From assembly GCA_944321505.1 (NCBI GenBank), contig CALULN010000002.1:1-45626 (forward strand): a stretch of DNA of 45,626 nucleotides, given 5' to 3'. Under the pieces are notes generated by a model. The model was not told where the DNA came from and did not search any database. It saw only the letters and a program-made list of their open reading frames with translations. The position numbers were made by a program, and so were the translations under genes. Of this stretch, positions 20,991-27,449 are shown one piece after another (position 1 is the stretch's first letter; each line of letters begins with the position of its first letter). This stretch comes from Candidatus Methanomethylophilaceae archaeon. Lineage in GTDB: Archaea > Thermoplasmatota > Thermoplasmata > Methanomassiliicoccales > Methanomethylophilaceae.

Positions 20991-21980
20991 TCAGTCCATG
21001 GCGGAGTTGATGGCGATCTCCGCGATGTCGATTGAATACTCGATTATCCTCTTAACGTTGCTGGAGAGCATGCTGACGGCCACGGCGGAATCCGCCGCCA
21101 GCCCGGTTCCGACGCTGTGCAGCTTCACGATCCCCTCCAGGGCGGTCCTGCATCTGCCGATGCAGTCGTTGGCTGCCACGGCGTCCTTGCCCATCAGGGT
21201 GTCCATGGATTCCAGGAACAGGGAAGCGAGGCCCATGTCCTCCACGATCCCGGCGATGGCGCTCAGGGCCTTCGGGTCGTCCACATTGGCCAGATAGCCG
21301 TTCATGGACACCACGTGGTCGCCGATCCTCTCGATGATCCTGGAGACTATGTAGAAGTCGGTCATCTCCTCTGGGGATATGCCGATCTTGCGGTACAGCG
21401 CCGGACGGCTCTGGAATATGTGGTTCTGCCTGGCTATGAGCCAGTCGAGGCGGTCGATGTCCCTGTCGCGCTTGTCCAGGTCGGGGGCGGAGCGCCCCTC
21501 CTTCAGGGCCGCCAGGGTCTCGGCGATCATATTCCTGACAAGTATCCGCATGCGGTCCAGGCTCTTGCGGGGCCGCATCTCCGCTGGATCCATGAGGTCC
21601 TTGATGACTATGTTGCGCCCGTCCTCCTCCAGGATCTCGAAGCCTATTGACGTCTGTGTGAAGTCCTCGGCCGCGTTGGAGATGGACGGATCCATGTCTG
21701 TCTTGGAGATGAGTTCGATGGTGTCGTATCCCGCCATGTATGATCCGACCAGCAGCCTGTAGGCCAGGTCGGTGTCCATGTCGTCGGTGACCTCGATGCG
21801 GCGCCTGTCCTTCGCTCTGGGCCCGCTGTCCCCGCGGGAGTTTATGATCAGGCTCCCGTCGGTGCCGTTCTCCAGGTAGACGGTGTCGTTCTTCTTCAGG
21901 TTGCAGCTCTCGATCCACTCCTTCGGGAGGGTAACGATGTACGAGGAGCCCCCTGTCATCTGGAGCTTGCGGCTCTCCAT
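20991..21980 (-). CDS. AbrB-PhoU phosphate-response regulator
   Basis: The 329-residue protein joins an N-terminal SpoVT/AbrB-type DNA-binding domain (MESRKLQMTGGSSYIVTLPK, about 1-45) to two PhoU-like helical repeats (about 90-325). Such fusions are archaeal phosphate-uptake regulators thought to bind DNA directly. ATG 21980 is chosen because AbrB domains typically begin there and a TATATATC box (complement of 22003-22010) lies about 26 bp upstream; ATG 21992 is possible from a second TATA at about 22015-22027. A half-conserved copy of the pst operator lies upstream, hinting at autoregulation. It follows phoU after a terminator. Confidence 0.85.
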   Translation of the reverse strand: MESRKLQMTGGSSYIVTLPKEWIESCNLKKNDTVYLENGTDGSLIINSRGDSGPRAKDRRRIEVTDDMDTDLAYRLLVGSYMAGYDTIELISKTDMDPSISNAAEDFTQTSIGFEILEEDGRNIVIKDLMDPAEMRPRKSLDRMRILVRNMIAETLAALKEGRSAPDLDKRDRDIDRLDWLIARQNHIFQSRPALYRKIGISPEEMTDFYIVSRIIERIGDHVVSMNGYLANVDDPKALSAIAGIVEDMGLASLFLESMDTLMGKDAVAANDCIGRCRTALEGIVKLHSVGTGLAADSAVAVSMLSSNVKRIIEYSIDIAEIAINSAMD

Positions 21981-22035
21981 GTGGCTTTTCATATCGGAAT
22001 CCGATATATAGATAATCCATATAAAGAATATATGT

Positions 22036-22054
22036 CTATATAGAATACATATAG
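22036..22054 (-). promoter_or_regulatory. Pst-like operator upstream of the AbrB-PhoU gene
   Basis: CTATAT-N7-ATATAG contains ATATAGAATACATAT, which matches 13 of 15 positions of the palindrome found twice before pstS. It lies immediately upstream of the TATA-like elements of this gene. It is a candidate binding site for the AbrB-PhoU protein itself; this is inference. Confidence 0.5.
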
Positions 22055-22087
22055 TATCGGAATCTGGCTGTCCTCTATCGGACGATT

Positions 22088-22118
22088 CAAAAAATGGAAC
22101 GGAGGGGCCGGAGCCCCT
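22088..22118 (-). terminator. Terminator after phoU
   Basis: AGGGGC/GCCCCT with loop CGGA (22103-22118) is followed on the minus strand by CCGTTCCATTTTTT. This is a good intrinsic-type terminator that separates the pst operon from the AbrB-PhoU gene. Confidence 0.6.
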
Positions 22119-22123
22119 GTTTC

Positions 22124-22771
22124 TCACCTGATGACCACGTGCATGCCGGTGACCATGAAGTTGATCTTCTCGGCCATCTTGCACGCATGGTCCCCCACCC
22201 TCTCCAGGAACTTGAGGATGGAGATGTAGTAGGTGCACACGTCGGCGCTGTTCTCGTTGGAGTTGATGAACCCGACTATCTCCATGAGGCTCTTCCTCAT
22301 GGTCTCGTCCAGGTAGTCGTCCTTCTCCACGATGCTGCCGAAGCCGTCCACGGACTTCTCCTCGAAGCCCTTGGTTACGATCCTCACCATCTCCACCACG
22401 GTCCTACCCATGGGGGCGATGAGGTCCCTGGGGGGGTACGACTCCCTCTGGGACAGGTACTCGGTGGCCACGGCGATGTTCTTGCTGTACTTGCCGATGC
22501 GCTCCAGGTAGGTGATGGACTTCAGCACCGCCACTATGGTCCTGGTGTCCACCGCCGTGGGCTGGTAGAGGGTCAGGATCCTGGTGGCCATGTCCTCTAT
22601 CTCGGTGTCGTACCTGCTGATGGCCTCGAAGTCGGCTATGACCTTCTGGGCCTTCTGCACGTCGTCGGTGGTGACGGCGTCCACGGCGGCGGCGATCATC
22701 TCCGCCGCCAGGTCGCCCATCTTCACGGTCTCCGCGATCATCGCGTCTATGTCGTTGACGAATCTCTGCAT
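22124..22771 (-). CDS. phoU: Phosphate transport system regulator PhoU
   Basis: The 215-residue, all-helical protein has two PhoU repeats; YLERIGKYSKNIA and FLERVGDHACKMAE each carry the E-R-[IV]-[GA]-[DK] metal-cluster motif. PhoU links PstSCAB transport to regulation. The start sits 4 bp after pstB, behind a ribosome site read as GGTGATATCATG, the same 12-mer that starts the permease gene. It is the last gene of the pst operon. Confidence 0.93.
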   Translation of the reverse strand: MQRFVNDIDAMIAETVKMGDLAAEMIAAAVDAVTTDDVQKAQKVIADFEAISRYDTEIEDMATRILTLYQPTAVDTRTIVAVLKSITYLERIGKYSKNIAVATEYLSQRESYPPRDLIAPMGRTVVEMVRIVTKGFEEKSVDGFGSIVEKDDYLDETMRKSLMEIVGFINSNENSADVCTYYISILKFLERVGDHACKMAEKINFMVTGMHVVIR

Positions 22772-22775
22772 GATA

Positions 22776-23570
22776 TCACCCGAATCTCCCGGTGAGGTAC
22801 CTCTCGGTCATCTCCTCCCTGGGCTTGTTGAACAGCGGCTCGGTCTCCCCGAACTCGATCATCTTGCCCAGGTACATGAAGCCGGTGTAGTCGCTGATGC
22901 GTGACGCCTGCTGCATGTTGTGAGTGACGATTGCCACGGTGTAGTCCTTCTTCAGCTCTATGGCCAGGTCCTCGATCTTGGAGGTGGCGATGGGGTCCAG
23001 CGCGGAGGTGGGCTCATCCATCAGCAGCACCTCGGGGTTCACCGAAAGCGCCCTGGCGATGCACAGCCTCTGCTGCTGCCCTCCGGACAGGCCCAGGGCG
23101 GACTTGTCCAGGCGGTCCGCCACCTCGTCGTAGAGGGCGGCCTTCTGGAGGCAGGACTCCACGATCTCGTCCAGCTCCGCCTTGTCCCTGATGCCGTGTA
23201 TCTTGGGACCGTAGGTGATGTTGTCCCTGATCGACATCGGGAAGGGGTTCGGCTTCTGGAAGATCATGCCGATCCTGGTCCTCAGTGCGTTCAGATCCAC
23301 GTCGGGGGCGTACAGGTCCTCTCCGCGGAACAGCATCTGCCCCTCGATCCTGCATCCCTCGACCAGATCGTTCATCCTGTTGATGCTCCTGAGCAGGGTG
23401 GATTTCCCGCATCCCGAAGGCCCGATGAGGGCGGTGATGCGGTTCTTCTTCACCGGCATGGAGACATCGAACAGGGCCTGCTTGTCGCCGTACCACAGGT
23501 TGATGTTCCTGATGTCTATGACGACCTCTCCGCCGGGGCTCCCGGCGTTCTCTGTGTTGATGCTATCCAT
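22776..23570 (-). CDS. pstB: Phosphate ABC transporter ATP-binding protein PstB
   Basis: The 264-residue ATPase has Walker [10 protein letters not shown], the PstB-specific [16 protein letters not shown] region, Q-loop [11 protein letters not shown], signature [15 protein letters not shown], Walker [13 protein letters not shown] and an H-loop THNMQQ. It powers phosphate import through the fused permease upstream. It starts 6 bp after the permease stop with GGTGAT as ribosome site. Confidence 0.96.
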
Positions 23571-23576
23571 TTGGAA

Positions 23577-25580
23577 TCACCATCTGATCTTCTTGTTGCT
23601 GCGGTACCTGATGACCGAGGCCAGGAGGAACATGGCCAGCACCAGTATCAGCAGGACACAGGCGGTCCCGTACTGCTGGGCGGTGCTCCCGGGCACCTCC
23701 ATCGACAGGTAGTAAAGGTGGTAGGGCAGGGCCATGACGGGCTCGAATATGCTCCCGGCCATGGAAGTGGAGAATCCCACCGCCGCCGTGAACATGATGG
23801 GTGCGGTCTCTCCCGCCGCACGTCCGACGGCCAGGATGGAGCCGGTCATCACGCCGCTTATCGCTGCGGGCAGGATGACCTTCACGGTGGTCTGCCATTT
23901 GGATGCGCCCATGGCCCTGGAGGCCTCCCTGAGCTCGTGGGGCACCGCCTGTATGGATTCCTCCGTCGTCCTGATGATGACCGGCAGGATCATCAGCGCC
24001 AGGGTGATCCACCCTGCCGCCATGGACCTGCCCCAGCCCAGCATCTGGACCAGCGCGGCCATGCCGAACAGTCCGAAGACGATGGACGGCGTGCCGTTGA
24101 GGATATCGATGGCCTCCCTGATGATGCGTGTGCTCCTGGTGTTCTTGGAGTACTCCGCCAGGTACACCCCGGCGATGATCCCCAGAGGCAGGGCGATGGC
24201 TATGGTCCCTGCCATGAGCTCCAGGGTCCCGACAATCGCCGGGTATATGCCTCCCTCGAGGCCCATGTTGCTGGGTTCCTGGGTCAGGAAGTCCAGGGAC
24301 AGGGCGGGTATGCCATTGATGAAGATGTAGCCTATGATCACAACGAGGATGAGCACCACGAACCCCATCAGGAACCCGAGGCCGGTGTGGCAGATCTCCT
24401 GGGTGGTCTTCGCGTTGCCGGTCTGCAGGTACCTCAGCCCGATCGCCACGGCCGCGACGACAACCGCCGCAAAGACTATCGCCATGAGCTCGTCCACGAA
24501 CAGCGACAGCATCATCCAAGCGAACACGAACAGGAGCACGGCTCCCGCCGCGCGCATGATGAGCTGCTTGTTCTTGTGGGCCTTGGCGTAGACCTCCGAC
24601 TCCACGATGGGGCCGATGATGCGGTCGATAAGGGAGGAGAACCTGCCTTCTTTGGCATCCTCCTCCCCGAATCTGCGCTTGGTCCTCCTGATGACCGCGC
24701 GAGCGCAGAAGTTGATCAGGAGCACGATGACCATCAGCACCAGGGCAAGGGCGAACAGCGAGGAGTAGTGGACGCTGCCGACGACGACCTCGGGCATCTC
24801 CCCGGCAAGAGTGCCGGTGATGGTCGTAATGACAGAGAATATGTTCCATATGGGCTCGGGGAACACCGGGCTGTTGCCGGTGACCATCATCACCGCCATG
24901 GTCTCTCCTATCGCCCTTCCTATTCCGAGGATCGCCGCCGCGGAGATCCCGGAGATCGCAGCGGGGACGATGACCTTGATGGTGGTCTCCCACTTGGAGG
25001 CCCCCATGGCAAGGGATGCCTCCCTGTACGACTGGGGGACGGCGTGTATGGCGTCCTCCGACACGGATATGACGGTGGGCAGGGCCATGACCCCCAGCAG
25101 CAGGGAGCCTGCCAGCCAGGAGGATCCGTACACGGTCTGTCCGCTGAATATGTCGAGGATGAGCGGGACCAGCAGGATCAGTCCGATGAATCCGTAGACC
25201 ACCGACGGTATCCCCGCGAACACCTCGCACACGGGTTTGAGGATGTTGCGGTACTTCGCCGGGGCCACTTCCGATATGTATATTGCGCATCCAACTCCCA
25301 CCGGCACGGCGAACGCCACCGCACCGAGCGTGACCAGGATGGTGCCTGTGATTACCGGCACCGCGCCGTAGATCCCCTCTGCGGGATCCCACTCGGTGCC
25401 GAAGAGGAACTGCAGGATGCCGACGTCCTTGAAGGCATCCACGCTGTTGTACGCAATGAACAGTATGATCAGGAAAATCGCAAGCACGGCGACACCGGAC
25501 ACTGCGGTGAGGATGTGCTTGATGATCTGGTCTTTGTCCGCGCTCTTCCTCTTCGCCAGGCCGTACTGATATGCTTCCAT
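23577..25580 (-). CDS. Fused PstC-PstA phosphate permease
   Basis: The 667-residue single chain contains both permease halves. The N-terminal half is PstC-like, with the EAA loop in REASLAMGASKWETTIK and the following AIGETMAVMM. The C-terminal half is PstA-like, with REASRAMGASKWQTTVK and RAAGETAPIMFTAAV. A long linker with extra hydrophobic segments (about 300-380) joins them. PstC and PstA are usually separate proteins of about 300 residues each. No stop or start interrupts the junction, so this is a real fusion, not a frameshift. The ribosome site is GGTGATATC before ATG; a strong hairpin separates it from pstS. Confidence 0.92.
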   Translation of the reverse strand: MEAYQYGLAKRKSADKDQIIKHILTAVSGVAVLAIFLIILFIAYNSVDAFKDVGILQFLFGTEWDPAEGIYGAVPVITGTILVTLGAVAFAVPVGVGCAIYISEVAPAKYRNILKPVCEVFAGIPSVVYGFIGLILLVPLILDIFSGQTVYGSSWLAGSLLLGVMALPTVISVSEDAIHAVPQSYREASLAMGASKWETTIKVIVPAAISGISAAAILGIGRAIGETMAVMMVTGNSPVFPEPIWNIFSVITTITGTLAGEMPEVVVGSVHYSSLFALALVLMVIVLLINFCARAVIRRTKRRFGEEDAKEGRFSSLIDRIIGPIVESEVYAKAHKNKQLIMRAAGAVLLFVFAWMMLSLFVDELMAIVFAAVVVAAVAIGLRYLQTGNAKTTQEICHTGLGFLMGFVVLILVVIIGYIFINGIPALSLDFLTQEPSNMGLEGGIYPAIVGTLELMAGTIAIALPLGIIAGVYLAEYSKNTRSTRIIREAIDILNGTPSIVFGLFGMAALVQMLGWGRSMAAGWITLALMILPVIIRTTEESIQAVPHELREASRAMGASKWQTTVKVILPAAISGVMTGSILAVGRAAGETAPIMFTAAVGFSTSMAGSIFEPVMALPYHLYYLSMEVPGSTAQQYGTACVLLILVLAMFLLASVIRYRSNKKIRW

Positions 25581-25608
25581 GATATCACCGGTATGGTTGG
25601 GAAAAGGC

Positions 25609-25627
25609 AGGGGGGCCGTACCCCCCT
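25609..25627 (-). terminator. Hairpin between pstS and the permease gene
   Basis: AGGGGGG / CCCCCCT with a 5-nt loop is followed on the minus strand by GCCTTTTCCC. It probably attenuates or stabilises the message so that the binding protein is made in excess over the permease. Confidence 0.55.
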
Positions 25628-25637
25628 AGAAAAAGGT

Positions 25638-27235
25638 TCAGAGGTCCTTCAGGGCTCCGATGCTCACGTATCCGATTGCACCCTCGGTGTTCTGCACCTG
25701 GGTCAGGACGGCACCGGTGGAGTTCTGCTCGGGAACGCCCGCCTTCATCTCCCAGCCCTCGAGTGCCTCTCCCATCTTCTCGTCGAAGCACTCTCTGGTA
25801 CCGGAGGAGTCGTCCCTGGCGATGACGGCGATCAGCTTGTCGTTGCCGCCGACCTCCTTCCAGTTGGTGATCTCACCGCTGTAGATCTTGGCGATCTGCT
25901 CGAGGGTCAGGTTCTCGACGCCGGCGTTGTTGACGATGACGGCGACTCCGTCCCTTCCGATCTGGATGGAGGACAGACCCTGAGCGGTCTCCTCGTCCTT
26001 CAGGTCGCGGGAGCACATGCCGATGTCGGACTGGCCGGAGGCGGCATTGCTGGCGCCCACACCGGATCCGCCACCGCTGACGGTGATGCGGATGGTGACG
26101 CCTGCGTCGGCGTACTCGGCCTCGTAGGCCTCGACCAGCTTGTTCATGATGGGCTCGATGGTGGTGGAGCCGGAGATGTCGAGGATGATGTCCTGAGTGG
26201 GAGCGGTGGTCTCGGTCATCTGGTCGGCGCCAAGGGGCACGAACTCCTCTGCAAGGACTGCCTGTCCCTTCTCGCTGGTGACGTAGTTGAGGAAGTTCTG
26301 CACCTCATAGGGAGCGTTCTCCAGCTCGCCCTTGATGCAGACGATGAGGTTCCTCTGGATCTCGTAGGTTCCGTTGGTGACGTTGTCCTCGTTGGCCTCG
26401 ACGTTGTTGACGTCGAGGGCGTAGGTGCCGGTGGGTCCGTTGAGGTCCTTCAGGGCCCCGATGCTCACGTATCCGATGGCGCCCTCGGTGTTCTTGACCT
26501 GGGTCAGGACGGCGCCGGTGGAGTTCTGTTCGGGCACCCCGGATTTCATCTCCCATCCGGGCAGGGCTGCCTCCATCTTCTCGTCGAAGCACTCTCTGGT
26601 ACCGGAGGAGTCGTCCCTGGCGATGACGGCGATCAGCTTGTCGTTGCCGCCGACCTGGTTCCAGTTGGTGATCTCTCCGCTGTAGATCTTGGCGATCTGC
26701 TCGAGGGTCAGGTCCTTGACCCCTGCGTTGTTGACGATGACTGCCACCCCGTCCCTTCCGATCTGGACGGAGGACAGGCCCTGGGCGGTCTCTTCAGCTT
26801 TCAGGTCGCGGGAGCACATGCCGATGTCGGACTGGCCGGACGCGGCGTTGCTGGCTCCGACTCCGGATCCTCCGCCGCTGACGTTGATGCTGATGGTGAC
26901 TCCGGCATCGGCGTATTTCGCGGTGTAGGCCTCCACGAGCTTGTTCATGATGGGCTCGATGGTGGTGGATCCAGAAATGTCAAGGGTTATGTCCTGGGTA
27001 GGAGCGGTTGTTTCGGTCATCTCGTCCTCGGGGAGGGGCACGAACTCCTCTGCGAGGACTGCCTGCCCGTCGGCGCTGGTGACGTAGTTGAGGAAGTTCT
27101 GCACGTCGTAGGGAGCATTCTCCAGCTCGCCCTTGATGCAGACGATCAGATTCCTCTGGATCTTGTAGGTGTTGTTGGTGACGTTGTCCTCGGTGGCGGC
27201 CACGCCGTCGATGCTGACGGCGTATGTGCCCTCCG
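25638..27235 (-). repeat. 801-bp tandem duplication within pstS
   Basis: Two copies of a unit of about 801 bp make up nearly the whole gene. For example, the stretches starting at 25638 and 26439 match with only a few substitutions, and those around 25780-25850 and 26581-26651 are almost identical. The high DNA identity, including third codon positions, suggests recent duplication or ongoing gene conversion. Confidence 0.85.
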
Positions 27236-27329
27236 AAGAAGACTTGTCGTCCTTGAGGAGCAGGTATCCGCCCACTCCCGCGATGGCGACGATCACCACA
27301 ACGATGATTGCGAGTATCTTCTTGTCCAA
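25638..27329 (-). CDS. pstS: Tandem, circularly permuted phosphate-binding protein PstS
   Basis: The 563-residue protein has an N-terminal membrane helix (about 5-25, no lipobox Cys). After it come a PstS C-terminal tail (about 35-99), a PstS body (113-296), a second tail (303-366) and a second body (380-563). The bodies hold the phosphate-site motifs SGSTTIEP, SGGGSGVGASN, SDIGMCSRD and RDDSSGTRECF. Both tail and body recur at 267-residue spacing (801 bp), with long near-identical DNA stretches, so the duplication is recent or homogenised. The order tail-body-tail-body is a circular permutation of normal PstS. The start is TTG (complement of 27327-27329), set by GAGGTG at 27338-27343. It heads pstS-pstCA-pstB-phoU. 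Confidence 0.9.
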   Translation of the reverse strand: MDKKILAIIVVVIVAIAGVGGYLLLKDDKSSSEGTYAVSIDGVAATEDNVTNNTYKIQRNLIVCIKGELENAPYDVQNFLNYVTSADGQAVLAEEFVPLPEDEMTETTAPTQDITLDISGSTTIEPIMNKLVEAYTAKYADAGVTISINVSGGGSGVGASNAASGQSDIGMCSRDLKAEETAQGLSSVQIGRDGVAVIVNNAGVKDLTLEQIAKIYSGEITNWNQVGGNDKLIAVIARDDSSGTRECFDEKMEAALPGWEMKSGVPEQNSTGAVLTQVKNTEGAIGYVSIGALKDLNGPTGTYALDVNNVEANEDNVTNGTYEIQRNLIVCIKGELENAPYEVQNFLNYVTSEKGQAVLAEEFVPLGADQMTETTAPTQDIILDISGSTTIEPIMNKLVEAYEAEYADAGVTIRITVSGGGSGVGASNAASGQSDIGMCSRDLKDEETAQGLSSIQIGRDGVAVIVNNAGVENLTLEQIAKIYSGEITNWKEVGGNDKLIAVIARDDSSGTRECFDEKMGEALEGWEMKAGVPEQNSTGAVLTQVQNTEGAIGYVSIGALKDL

Positions 27330-27401
27330 GGTATTGCACCTCGGAGCGTGACTCCCCGCTGCGCCGTATATAGTTGTTCGAAGTAATATATTGGTTGGAA
27401 T

Positions 27402-27449
27402 ATATCAATATAGAATCTATATATCTCTATATAGAATCTATATTGATAT
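27402..27449 (-). promoter_or_regulatory. 48-bp palindromic double operator upstream of pstS
   Basis: Two copies of the perfect 15-bp palindrome ATATAGAATCTATAT lie at 27408-27422 and 27429-27443, 21 bp apart (two helical turns). They are embedded in a larger near-palindrome in which 21 of 24 base pairs match between the arms; the outer 13 bp (27402-27414 and 27437-27449) are perfect. TATA-like elements for pstS lie just downstream at about 27365-27393. This is a strong candidate phosphate-response operator. Confidence 0.75.

What the first reader, a model, noticed from the sequence alone, without database searches (positions are those of the whole stretch)
25638..27329. PstS built from two tandem circularly permuted units
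After the membrane helix the protein runs tail-body-tail-body, where tail is the C-terminal segment of ordinary PstS and body the rest. Unit length is 267 residues (801 bp). The central body1-tail2 pair has normal order, while tail1 must pair with body1 by permutation or with body2 across the whole chain. Both bodies keep all the phosphate-loop motifs. It is therefore either a two-site binding protein covalently tethered to the membrane or a domain-swapped ring-like chain. The DNA identity between units suggests recent duplication or gene conversion. I know of no described PstS of this type.
Basis: partly seen in the sequence, partly recalled or inferred. Interest (0 to 1): 0.8.

Follow-up and report, generated by a model that had tools for sequence, protein, structure and literature searches.

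The report
Tandem circularly permuted phosphate-binding protein
A gut-type methanogen catches phosphate with a membrane-anchored protein made of two copies of the usual binding domain, each with its tail moved from the end to the front; relatives show that this rearrangement of a common nutrient receptor has happened several times and kept most of its intermediate stages.

Summary
The 563-aa pstS product (25638-27329, minus strand) reads anchor helix, tail1, body1, tail2, body2, in units of 267 residues (801 bp). Both tails match the C-terminal segment of solved PstS proteins.

It is not a misassembly. Five genomes in the family have the same tail-body-tail-body order, one of them a single-contig genome. 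Sixteen others have a SINGLE tail-body unit (one is frameshifted), including the closest relative, in the same genus. The genes checked sit directly before pstCA and pstB. With only one tail and one body, the natural reading is a circularly permuted PstS, so the window gene is best read as two permuted units in tandem.

AlphaFold2 agrees: the single unit scores pLDDT 93; in the full chain the weak joint lies between body1 and tail2, and sequence-order superposition of body1-tail2 on ordinary PstS fails (about 20 A).

The order also holds in-line duplicates (body-tail-body-tail) and ordinary PstS, and a tree rejects a single origin of the permuted form. A different PstS permutation occurs in an unremarked crystal structure (4h1x) and in other archaea.

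New variant of a known kind: a permuted type I binding protein (TpMglB-2) is published. I found no paper on permuted PstS.

The parts
25638..27329 (-). pstS gene, tail-body-tail-body, TTG start, 563 aa
   Evidence: ORF; domain order; NCBIfam TIGR02136 365 bits against a cut-off of 206.6
27255..27323 (-). N-terminal membrane helix (aa 3-25), no lipobox cysteine
   Evidence: sequence; helix 3-25 in the AlphaFold2 model, followed by a low-confidence stretch 24-32
27027..27227 (-). tail1 (aa 35-101): C-terminal segment of ordinary PstS, here first
   Evidence: tail HMM 3e-25; aligns to 4q8r 184-241 through its copy tail2
26442..26996 (-). body1 (aa 112-296): PstS body with the phosphate-site motifs GSTT, GGGSG, SRDL, RDDSSGTR
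   Evidence: body HMM 2e-77; motif residues invariant in 21 permuted units
26427..26441 (-). joint body1-tail2 (aa 297-301, NGPTG), proposed hinge between the two binding units
   Evidence: HMM-normalised joint 6-9 aa in the five tandem proteins against at most 4 aa in 35 ordinary ones; pLDDT drops to 69 at aa 291-300
26223..26426 (-). tail2 (aa 302-369)
   Evidence: tail HMM 5e-25
25641..26192 (-). body2 (aa 380-563), ends at IGALKDL with no tail after it
   Evidence: body HMM 1e-76; PF12849 stops at position 190 of 267
23577..25580 (-). fused PstC-PstA permease, next gene of the operon
   Evidence: two BPD_transp_1 stretches in one 667-aa ORF; follows the permuted pstS genes in relatives
22776..23570 (-). 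pstB ATPase
   Evidence: PF00005 6.5e-32
22124..22771 (-). phoU-like ORF
   Evidence: position directly after pstB; identification by sequence reading only
27402..27449 (.). double copy of a palindrome (TATAGAATCTATAT) upstream of pstS, candidate operator or promoter element
   Evidence: 2 exact copies, 0 expected by chance; one core copy upstream of the single permuted pstS of the sister genome

Best explanation
This is a two-site phosphate-binding protein made of two circularly permuted PstS domains in tandem, held to the outer face of the membrane by one N-terminal helix. In each unit the tail lies before the body, and a 13-16-residue linker joins what were the original C- and N-termini. 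Each tail packs on the body that FOLLOWS it (tail1 with body1, tail2 with body2), so each unit closes into a normal two-lobed PstS with its own phosphate site. The short joint between body1 and tail2 is the hinge between the two beads. Both beads deliver phosphate to the adjacent fused PstC-PstA/PstB transporter. The gene arose by in-frame tandem duplication of a single permuted pstS like that of its sister genome. The single permuted form presumably arose by the classical route: duplicate body-tail into body-tail-body-tail, then lose the outer body and the outer tail. Shown: the order, the relatives, the operon, the tree and the predicted fold. Inferred: phosphate binding by both units, the evolutionary path, and any benefit of two sites.
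For: (1) Single tail-body proteins of about 300 aa, which hold one tail and one body only, occur in 16 genomes of the family (one frameshifted) and in 8 of other families of the order. The window's nearest relative G094, in the same genus, is one of them. (2) Five tandem tail-body-tail-body genes exist (G000, G051, G053, G073, G074). G053 is one contig, 99% complete. (3) The permuted genes checked lie directly before pstC/pstA; pstB follows wherever the contig reaches that far, as in an ordinary pst operon. The window genome has no other pstS. (4) AlphaFold2 of one tail-body unit gives pLDDT 92.7, pTM 0.82. Over 194 columns it superposes at 2.3 A on 4h1x, a solved PstS in which the tail also precedes the N-terminal body part. 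(5) The full chain gives pLDDT 90.4, pTM 0.55. Confidence drops at aa 24-32 and around aa 291-300 (the body1-tail2 joint) but not at the tail1-body1 linker. Foldseek aligns it to ordinary PstS 4gd5 over 266 columns only at 20.9 A rmsd, so body1 and tail2 do not form one PstS domain in the model. (6) The body-to-tail joint is 6-9 aa in tandem proteins against at most 4 in 35 ordinary ones (Mann-Whitney p=3e-4). Tail-to-body linkers are alike in tandem (13-16) and single permuted (11-17) proteins. (7) In the tree the two units group together to the exclusion of G094, support 100/98. (8) In-line tandem body-tail-body-tail proteins exist in the same order.
Against: No binding, stoichiometry or expression data. 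The AlphaFold2 pairing depends partly on the alignment: tail-body and body-tail rows were nearly balanced on body1 (10 against 11), but body2 had only two rows. In a chain of near-identical units a swapped minority form cannot be excluded. Most genomes are metagenome bins. The step from body-tail-body-tail to tail-body is not caught within one clade: the in-line tandems found lie beside, not inside, the permuted clades.
Confidence: 0.8

Rival explanations
1. Domain-swapped chain: body1-tail2 in the middle is an ordinary PstS domain, and tail1 and body2 at the two ends close a second domain across the chain.
For: body1-tail2 is in normal order and matches the whole PF12849 model. An ordinary single body-tail gene (G064, L009) is nested among permuted and tandem relatives, as if it were the middle of such a chain.
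Against: Single tail-body relatives have no partner at the far end. The body1-tail2 joint is longer than in all 35 ordinary proteins. In the AlphaFold2 chain this joint is the weak point and body1-tail2 does not superpose on ordinary PstS.
Confidence: 0.12
2. Assembly artefact: two ordinary pstS genes in tandem, or a strain mixture, collapsed into a false tail-body-tail-body frame.
For: The genome is a 31-contig assembly and the units are 87% identical, so repeats could confuse an assembler. In G053 the two units are 99% identical.
Against: Five genomes share the order; G053 is a single contig. The same permuted order occurs as a non-repetitive single unit in many genomes, including the sister species. 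The units differ at 34% of fourfold sites and the flanking operon is intact.
Confidence: 0.02
3. Only one unit is active in transport; the second is a degenerate spacer that moves the working unit away from the membrane.
For: The anchor is N-terminal and archaeal cells may need reach through a surface layer (inference only).
Against: Both bodies keep all the motif residues that are invariant across 21 permuted units. In G053 the units are 98.8% identical, so neither is degenerating.
Confidence: 0.06

Closest known systems
PstS, short-form phosphate ABC transporter binding protein (TIGR02136 / PF12849; solved examples 4q8r, 4gd5, 1twy)
   Same: Sequence family, phosphate-site motifs, operon position before pstCA-pstB, predicted two-lobed fold of each unit.
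   Different: Order of segments is circularly permuted in each unit; two units in one chain; N-terminal helix instead of a cleaved signal or lipobox.
PDB 4h1x, Streptococcus pneumoniae PstS 2 (SP_2084), and the Allobaculum and archaeal family f26 proteins found here
   Same: Natural circular permutation of PstS in which the tail runs into the N-terminal body part through a short linker.
   Different: The break lies inside the body, between the NW-V-GG and RD-SGTR motifs, not between body and tail; single unit. I found no paper that remarks on this structure.
TpMglB-2 (Tp0684), circularly permuted glucose-binding protein, 'Type Ic' binding proteins (PMC4990184)
   Same: A natural circular permutation of an ABC-transporter binding protein that still binds its ligand; membrane-tethered.
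   Different: Type I fold, sugar ligand, a different break; single unit, and no intermediates were described in the passages read.
GlnPQ tandem substrate-binding domains (PMC8025302)
   Same: Two binding domains in tandem serving one ABC importer.
   Different: Fused to the permease, not permuted; the domains differ in specificity.
In-line tandem PstS (body-tail-body-tail), Methanocorpusculum petauri L083 and order members L184-L188
   Same: Two PstS units in one chain; pstC/pstA follow in those checked.
   Different: Normal order within each unit.

Membership tests
PstS phosphate-binding protein family (TIGR02136, PF12849) | Sequence above the curated cut-off | tested here: met
   TIGR02136 365 bits, cut-off 206.6; PF12849 273 bits, cut-off 27
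PstS phosphate-binding protein family (TIGR02136, PF12849) | Phosphate-site motifs in each body | tested here: met
   GST, GS-G, S in GM-SR, R and SGTR invariant in 21 permuted units, both window bodies included; their equation with the E. coli contact residues is from general knowledge
PstS phosphate-binding protein family (TIGR02136, PF12849) | Lies in a pst operon | tested here: met
   pstCA and pstB follow directly
PstS phosphate-binding protein family (TIGR02136, PF12849) | Segments in the standard linear order within each binding unit | tested here: not met
   tail-body-tail-body; this is why it is filed as a variant
PstS phosphate-binding protein family (TIGR02136, PF12849) | Binds phosphate | not testable with these tools
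   no assay
Circularly permuted proteins | Same fold with N- and C-terminal segments exchanged | tested here: met
   order by HMM and PDB alignment; unit model superposes at 2.3 A on permuted PstS 4h1x and at 3-5 A on the part shared in order with ordinary PstS
Type Ic binding proteins (TpMglB-2) | Type I (sugar-binding) fold with the N-lobe strands moved to the C-terminus | tested here: not met
   the best PDB matches by sequence and by fold are PstS-type phosphate-binding proteins
Tandem substrate-binding-domain importers (GlnPQ type) | Binding domains fused to the permease | tested here: not met
   pstS stops at 25638; pstCA starts separately at 25580

The most novel reading that the evidence does not exclude
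PstS in this archaeal order is a natural laboratory of circular permutation. Ordinary, in-line tandem, single permuted and tandem permuted forms all coexist in working pst operons; the permuted state arose several times independently at the same break point; and it can probably revert, because the middle of tail-body-tail-body is itself an ordinary body-tail PstS.
Probability: 0.6. Interest if true: 0.75.

Novelty: new variant of a known kind. Interest (0 to 1): 0.62.

Why it matters
Circular permutation by tandem duplication is a textbook route for which intermediates are seldom seen in one protein family. Here nearly every stage is present in living genomes, in the same operon, and repeatedly. 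That allows direct tests: whether the break point is dictated by structure, whether permutation changes how a tethered receptor meets its transporter, and whether two sites on one tether speed phosphate capture. It also warns that profile-based annotation reads such proteins as truncated or oddly duplicated PstS.

Tried and rejected
Misassembly: rejected by relatives. Single origin of permutation in the family: rejected by AU tests (all permuted rows one clade p=3e-14; window lineage + g14 p=1e-4; window lineage + g7 p=3e-6; all tandem units one clade p=5e-64). These groups were named after seeing the tree, so the p-values are indicative.

First genome-contig scan with the window protein alone found nothing; the alignment query worked. 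Ten paper searches found no description of a permuted or tandem PstS; most subscription papers are not held, so this is weak negative evidence.

Considered and not adopted: that tethering alone explains the permutation, as proposed for TpMglB-2, because ordinary relatives here appear to carry the same kind of N-terminal helix (sequences).

Full report
What is there. The gene at 25638-27329 on the minus strand (TTG start, 563 aa) encodes an N-terminal membrane helix followed by two repeats of 267 residues (801 bp). HMMs built separately for the PstS body and the PstS tail find tail, body, tail, body. Pfam finds one complete PF12849 domain over body1-tail2 and an incomplete one over body2. Compared with solved PstS proteins, the body of a unit matches 4q8r residues 6-178 and its leading tail matches residues 184-241. 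Unit identity is 88% in protein and 87% in DNA, with 34% of fourfold sites changed, so the duplication is not fresh.

It is not an assembly error. A search of 102 genomes of the same family gave 56 with PF12849. Classified with my HMMs, they show three architectures. There are ordinary body-tail proteins (35 rows). There are single permuted tail-body proteins of about 300 aa: 15 intact rows plus G016, whose gene is frameshifted. And there are tandem permuted tail-body-tail-body proteins in G000 (the window), G051, G053, G073 and G074; G053 is a single contig. In the relatives checked, the permuted or tandem gene is followed directly by pstC/pstA (fused in this family), and by pstB where the contig reaches that far. 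The window genome has no other pstS. Named records place the relatives in Methanomethylophilaceae / Methanomassiliicoccales; the window genome itself is unnamed.

How the units pair. A single tail-body protein has only one tail and one body, so in it the tail must pack on the following body unless it dimerises by swapping. The same linker (13-16 residues in tandem, 11-17 in single permuted proteins) joins tail to body in both kinds. The body1-to-tail2 joint of tandem proteins is 6-9 residues beyond the model ends, against at most 4 in 35 ordinary proteins (p=3e-4). In most of the five this joint is an acidic or polar insert (for example DNEEDTG, EPDDSTG, DDSSEVTG); in the window it is NGPTG. 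AlphaFold2 of one unit gave pLDDT 92.7. The full chain gave pLDDT 90.4 but pTM 0.55, with confidence dips after the membrane helix and at the body1-tail2 joint. That pattern suits two rigid beads of undefined relative orientation. Foldseek could align the chain with ordinary PstS 4gd5 over 266 columns only at 20.9 A rmsd, so body1 and tail2 do not form one domain in the model. The single-unit model superposes at 2.3 A over 194 columns on 4h1x, a solved PstS in which the tail also precedes the N-terminal body part. I therefore favour two beads, tail1-body1 and tail2-body2. The limits are that AlphaFold2 output depends on the alignment and that no coordinates were available to inspect contacts directly.

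How it evolved. In a maximum-likelihood tree of units the two units of each tandem protein group together, or within one tight cluster for G073/G074. The window's units are sister to the single permuted protein of G094, in the same genus. The tandem state therefore arose several times, or units are homogenised within chains. AU tests reject one clade of all permuted rows (p=3e-14) and joining the window's lineage with the permuted lineages of g14 or g7 (p=1e-4, 3e-6). Widening to the order added eight single permuted proteins in two other families (f5, f6) and five in-line tandem proteins (body-tail-body-tail, 580-615 aa). Methanocorpusculum petauri has another in-line tandem (L083). Ordinary, in-line tandem, single permuted and tandem permuted PstS thus coexist, which are the stages expected from permutation by duplication. 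G064 has an ordinary body-tail protein nested among permuted ones (borderline, p=0.04), which suggests that the middle of a tandem can be cut back to the ordinary form. Independent permuted lineages of this family break at the same place, right after the IG-L--L end of the body.

Relation to known things. It is PstS by sequence, motifs and operon but fails the standard order of segments. The nearest structural precedent is PDB 4h1x, S. pneumoniae PstS 2. The alignment shows it to be permuted at another point: C-terminal body part, tail, N-terminal body part. Allobaculum mucilyticum (L104) and nine genomes examined in a second family of this phylum (L215-L223) share that order. The nearest published precedent I found is the permuted glucose-binding protein TpMglB-2, for which ligand binding was shown (PMC4990184). 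Tandem binding domains are known from GlnPQ (PMC8025302). I found no paper on permuted or tandem PstS in ten searches of the held library, which does not cover most subscription journals.

Confidence. Order and recurrence are shown. The bead pairing is well supported but predicted. Two-site binding and any physiological gain are inferred.

Noticed in passing
L104:4587-5768 (Allobaculum mucilyticum, complete genome) and PDB 4h1x: PstS permuted at a different break (C-terminal body part, tail, N-terminal body part), a lipoprotein directly before pstC/pstA; the same order is in a solved S. pneumoniae structure for which I found no comment.
   Followed up: partly
L215-L223 (nine genomes, family f26 of the same phylum): The 4h1x-type permuted PstS, about 300 aa; the two read in full (L215, L221) carry a lipobox-like cysteine. 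One of these genomes (G252) also has an ordinary PstS (L224).
   Followed up: partly
L057:2965-4776 and L058:1991-4843 (G073, G074): A third PstS permutation (part of domain 2, tail, start of body) followed by a membrane-protein-like region, with no pst genes found nearby, in genomes that also have tandem permuted PstS; possibly a decayed derivative turned sensor.
   Followed up: no
window 27402-27449: Two copies of a 14-nt palindrome TATAGAATCTATAT at 21-bp spacing upstream of pstS (none expected by chance); one core copy upstream of the G094 gene. Candidate operator for the phosphate regulon.
   Followed up: partly
window 20991-22238: ORF whose later part reads like an archaeal AbrB-type DNA-binding domain joined to a PhoU-like domain, directly after a phoU-like ORF (22124-22771); likely regulator of the operon.
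   Followed up: no
window 23577-25580: PstC and PstA are fused into one 667-aa permease; conserved in the family and in Methanocorpusculum, but they are separate hits in families f5/f6.
   Followed up: partly
L184-L188, L083: In-line tandem PstS (body-tail-body-tail). In L184-L186 the first units group together apart from the second units, so that duplication is older than those species.
   Followed up: partly
window 22920-27386 (+): A 1488-codon open frame antisense to pstB-pstCA-pstS, with no sign of coding; probably a by-product of codon usage.
   Followed up: no
L056:2678-3602 (G016): Single permuted pstS broken by a frameshift (or a sequencing error) within the body.
   Followed up: no
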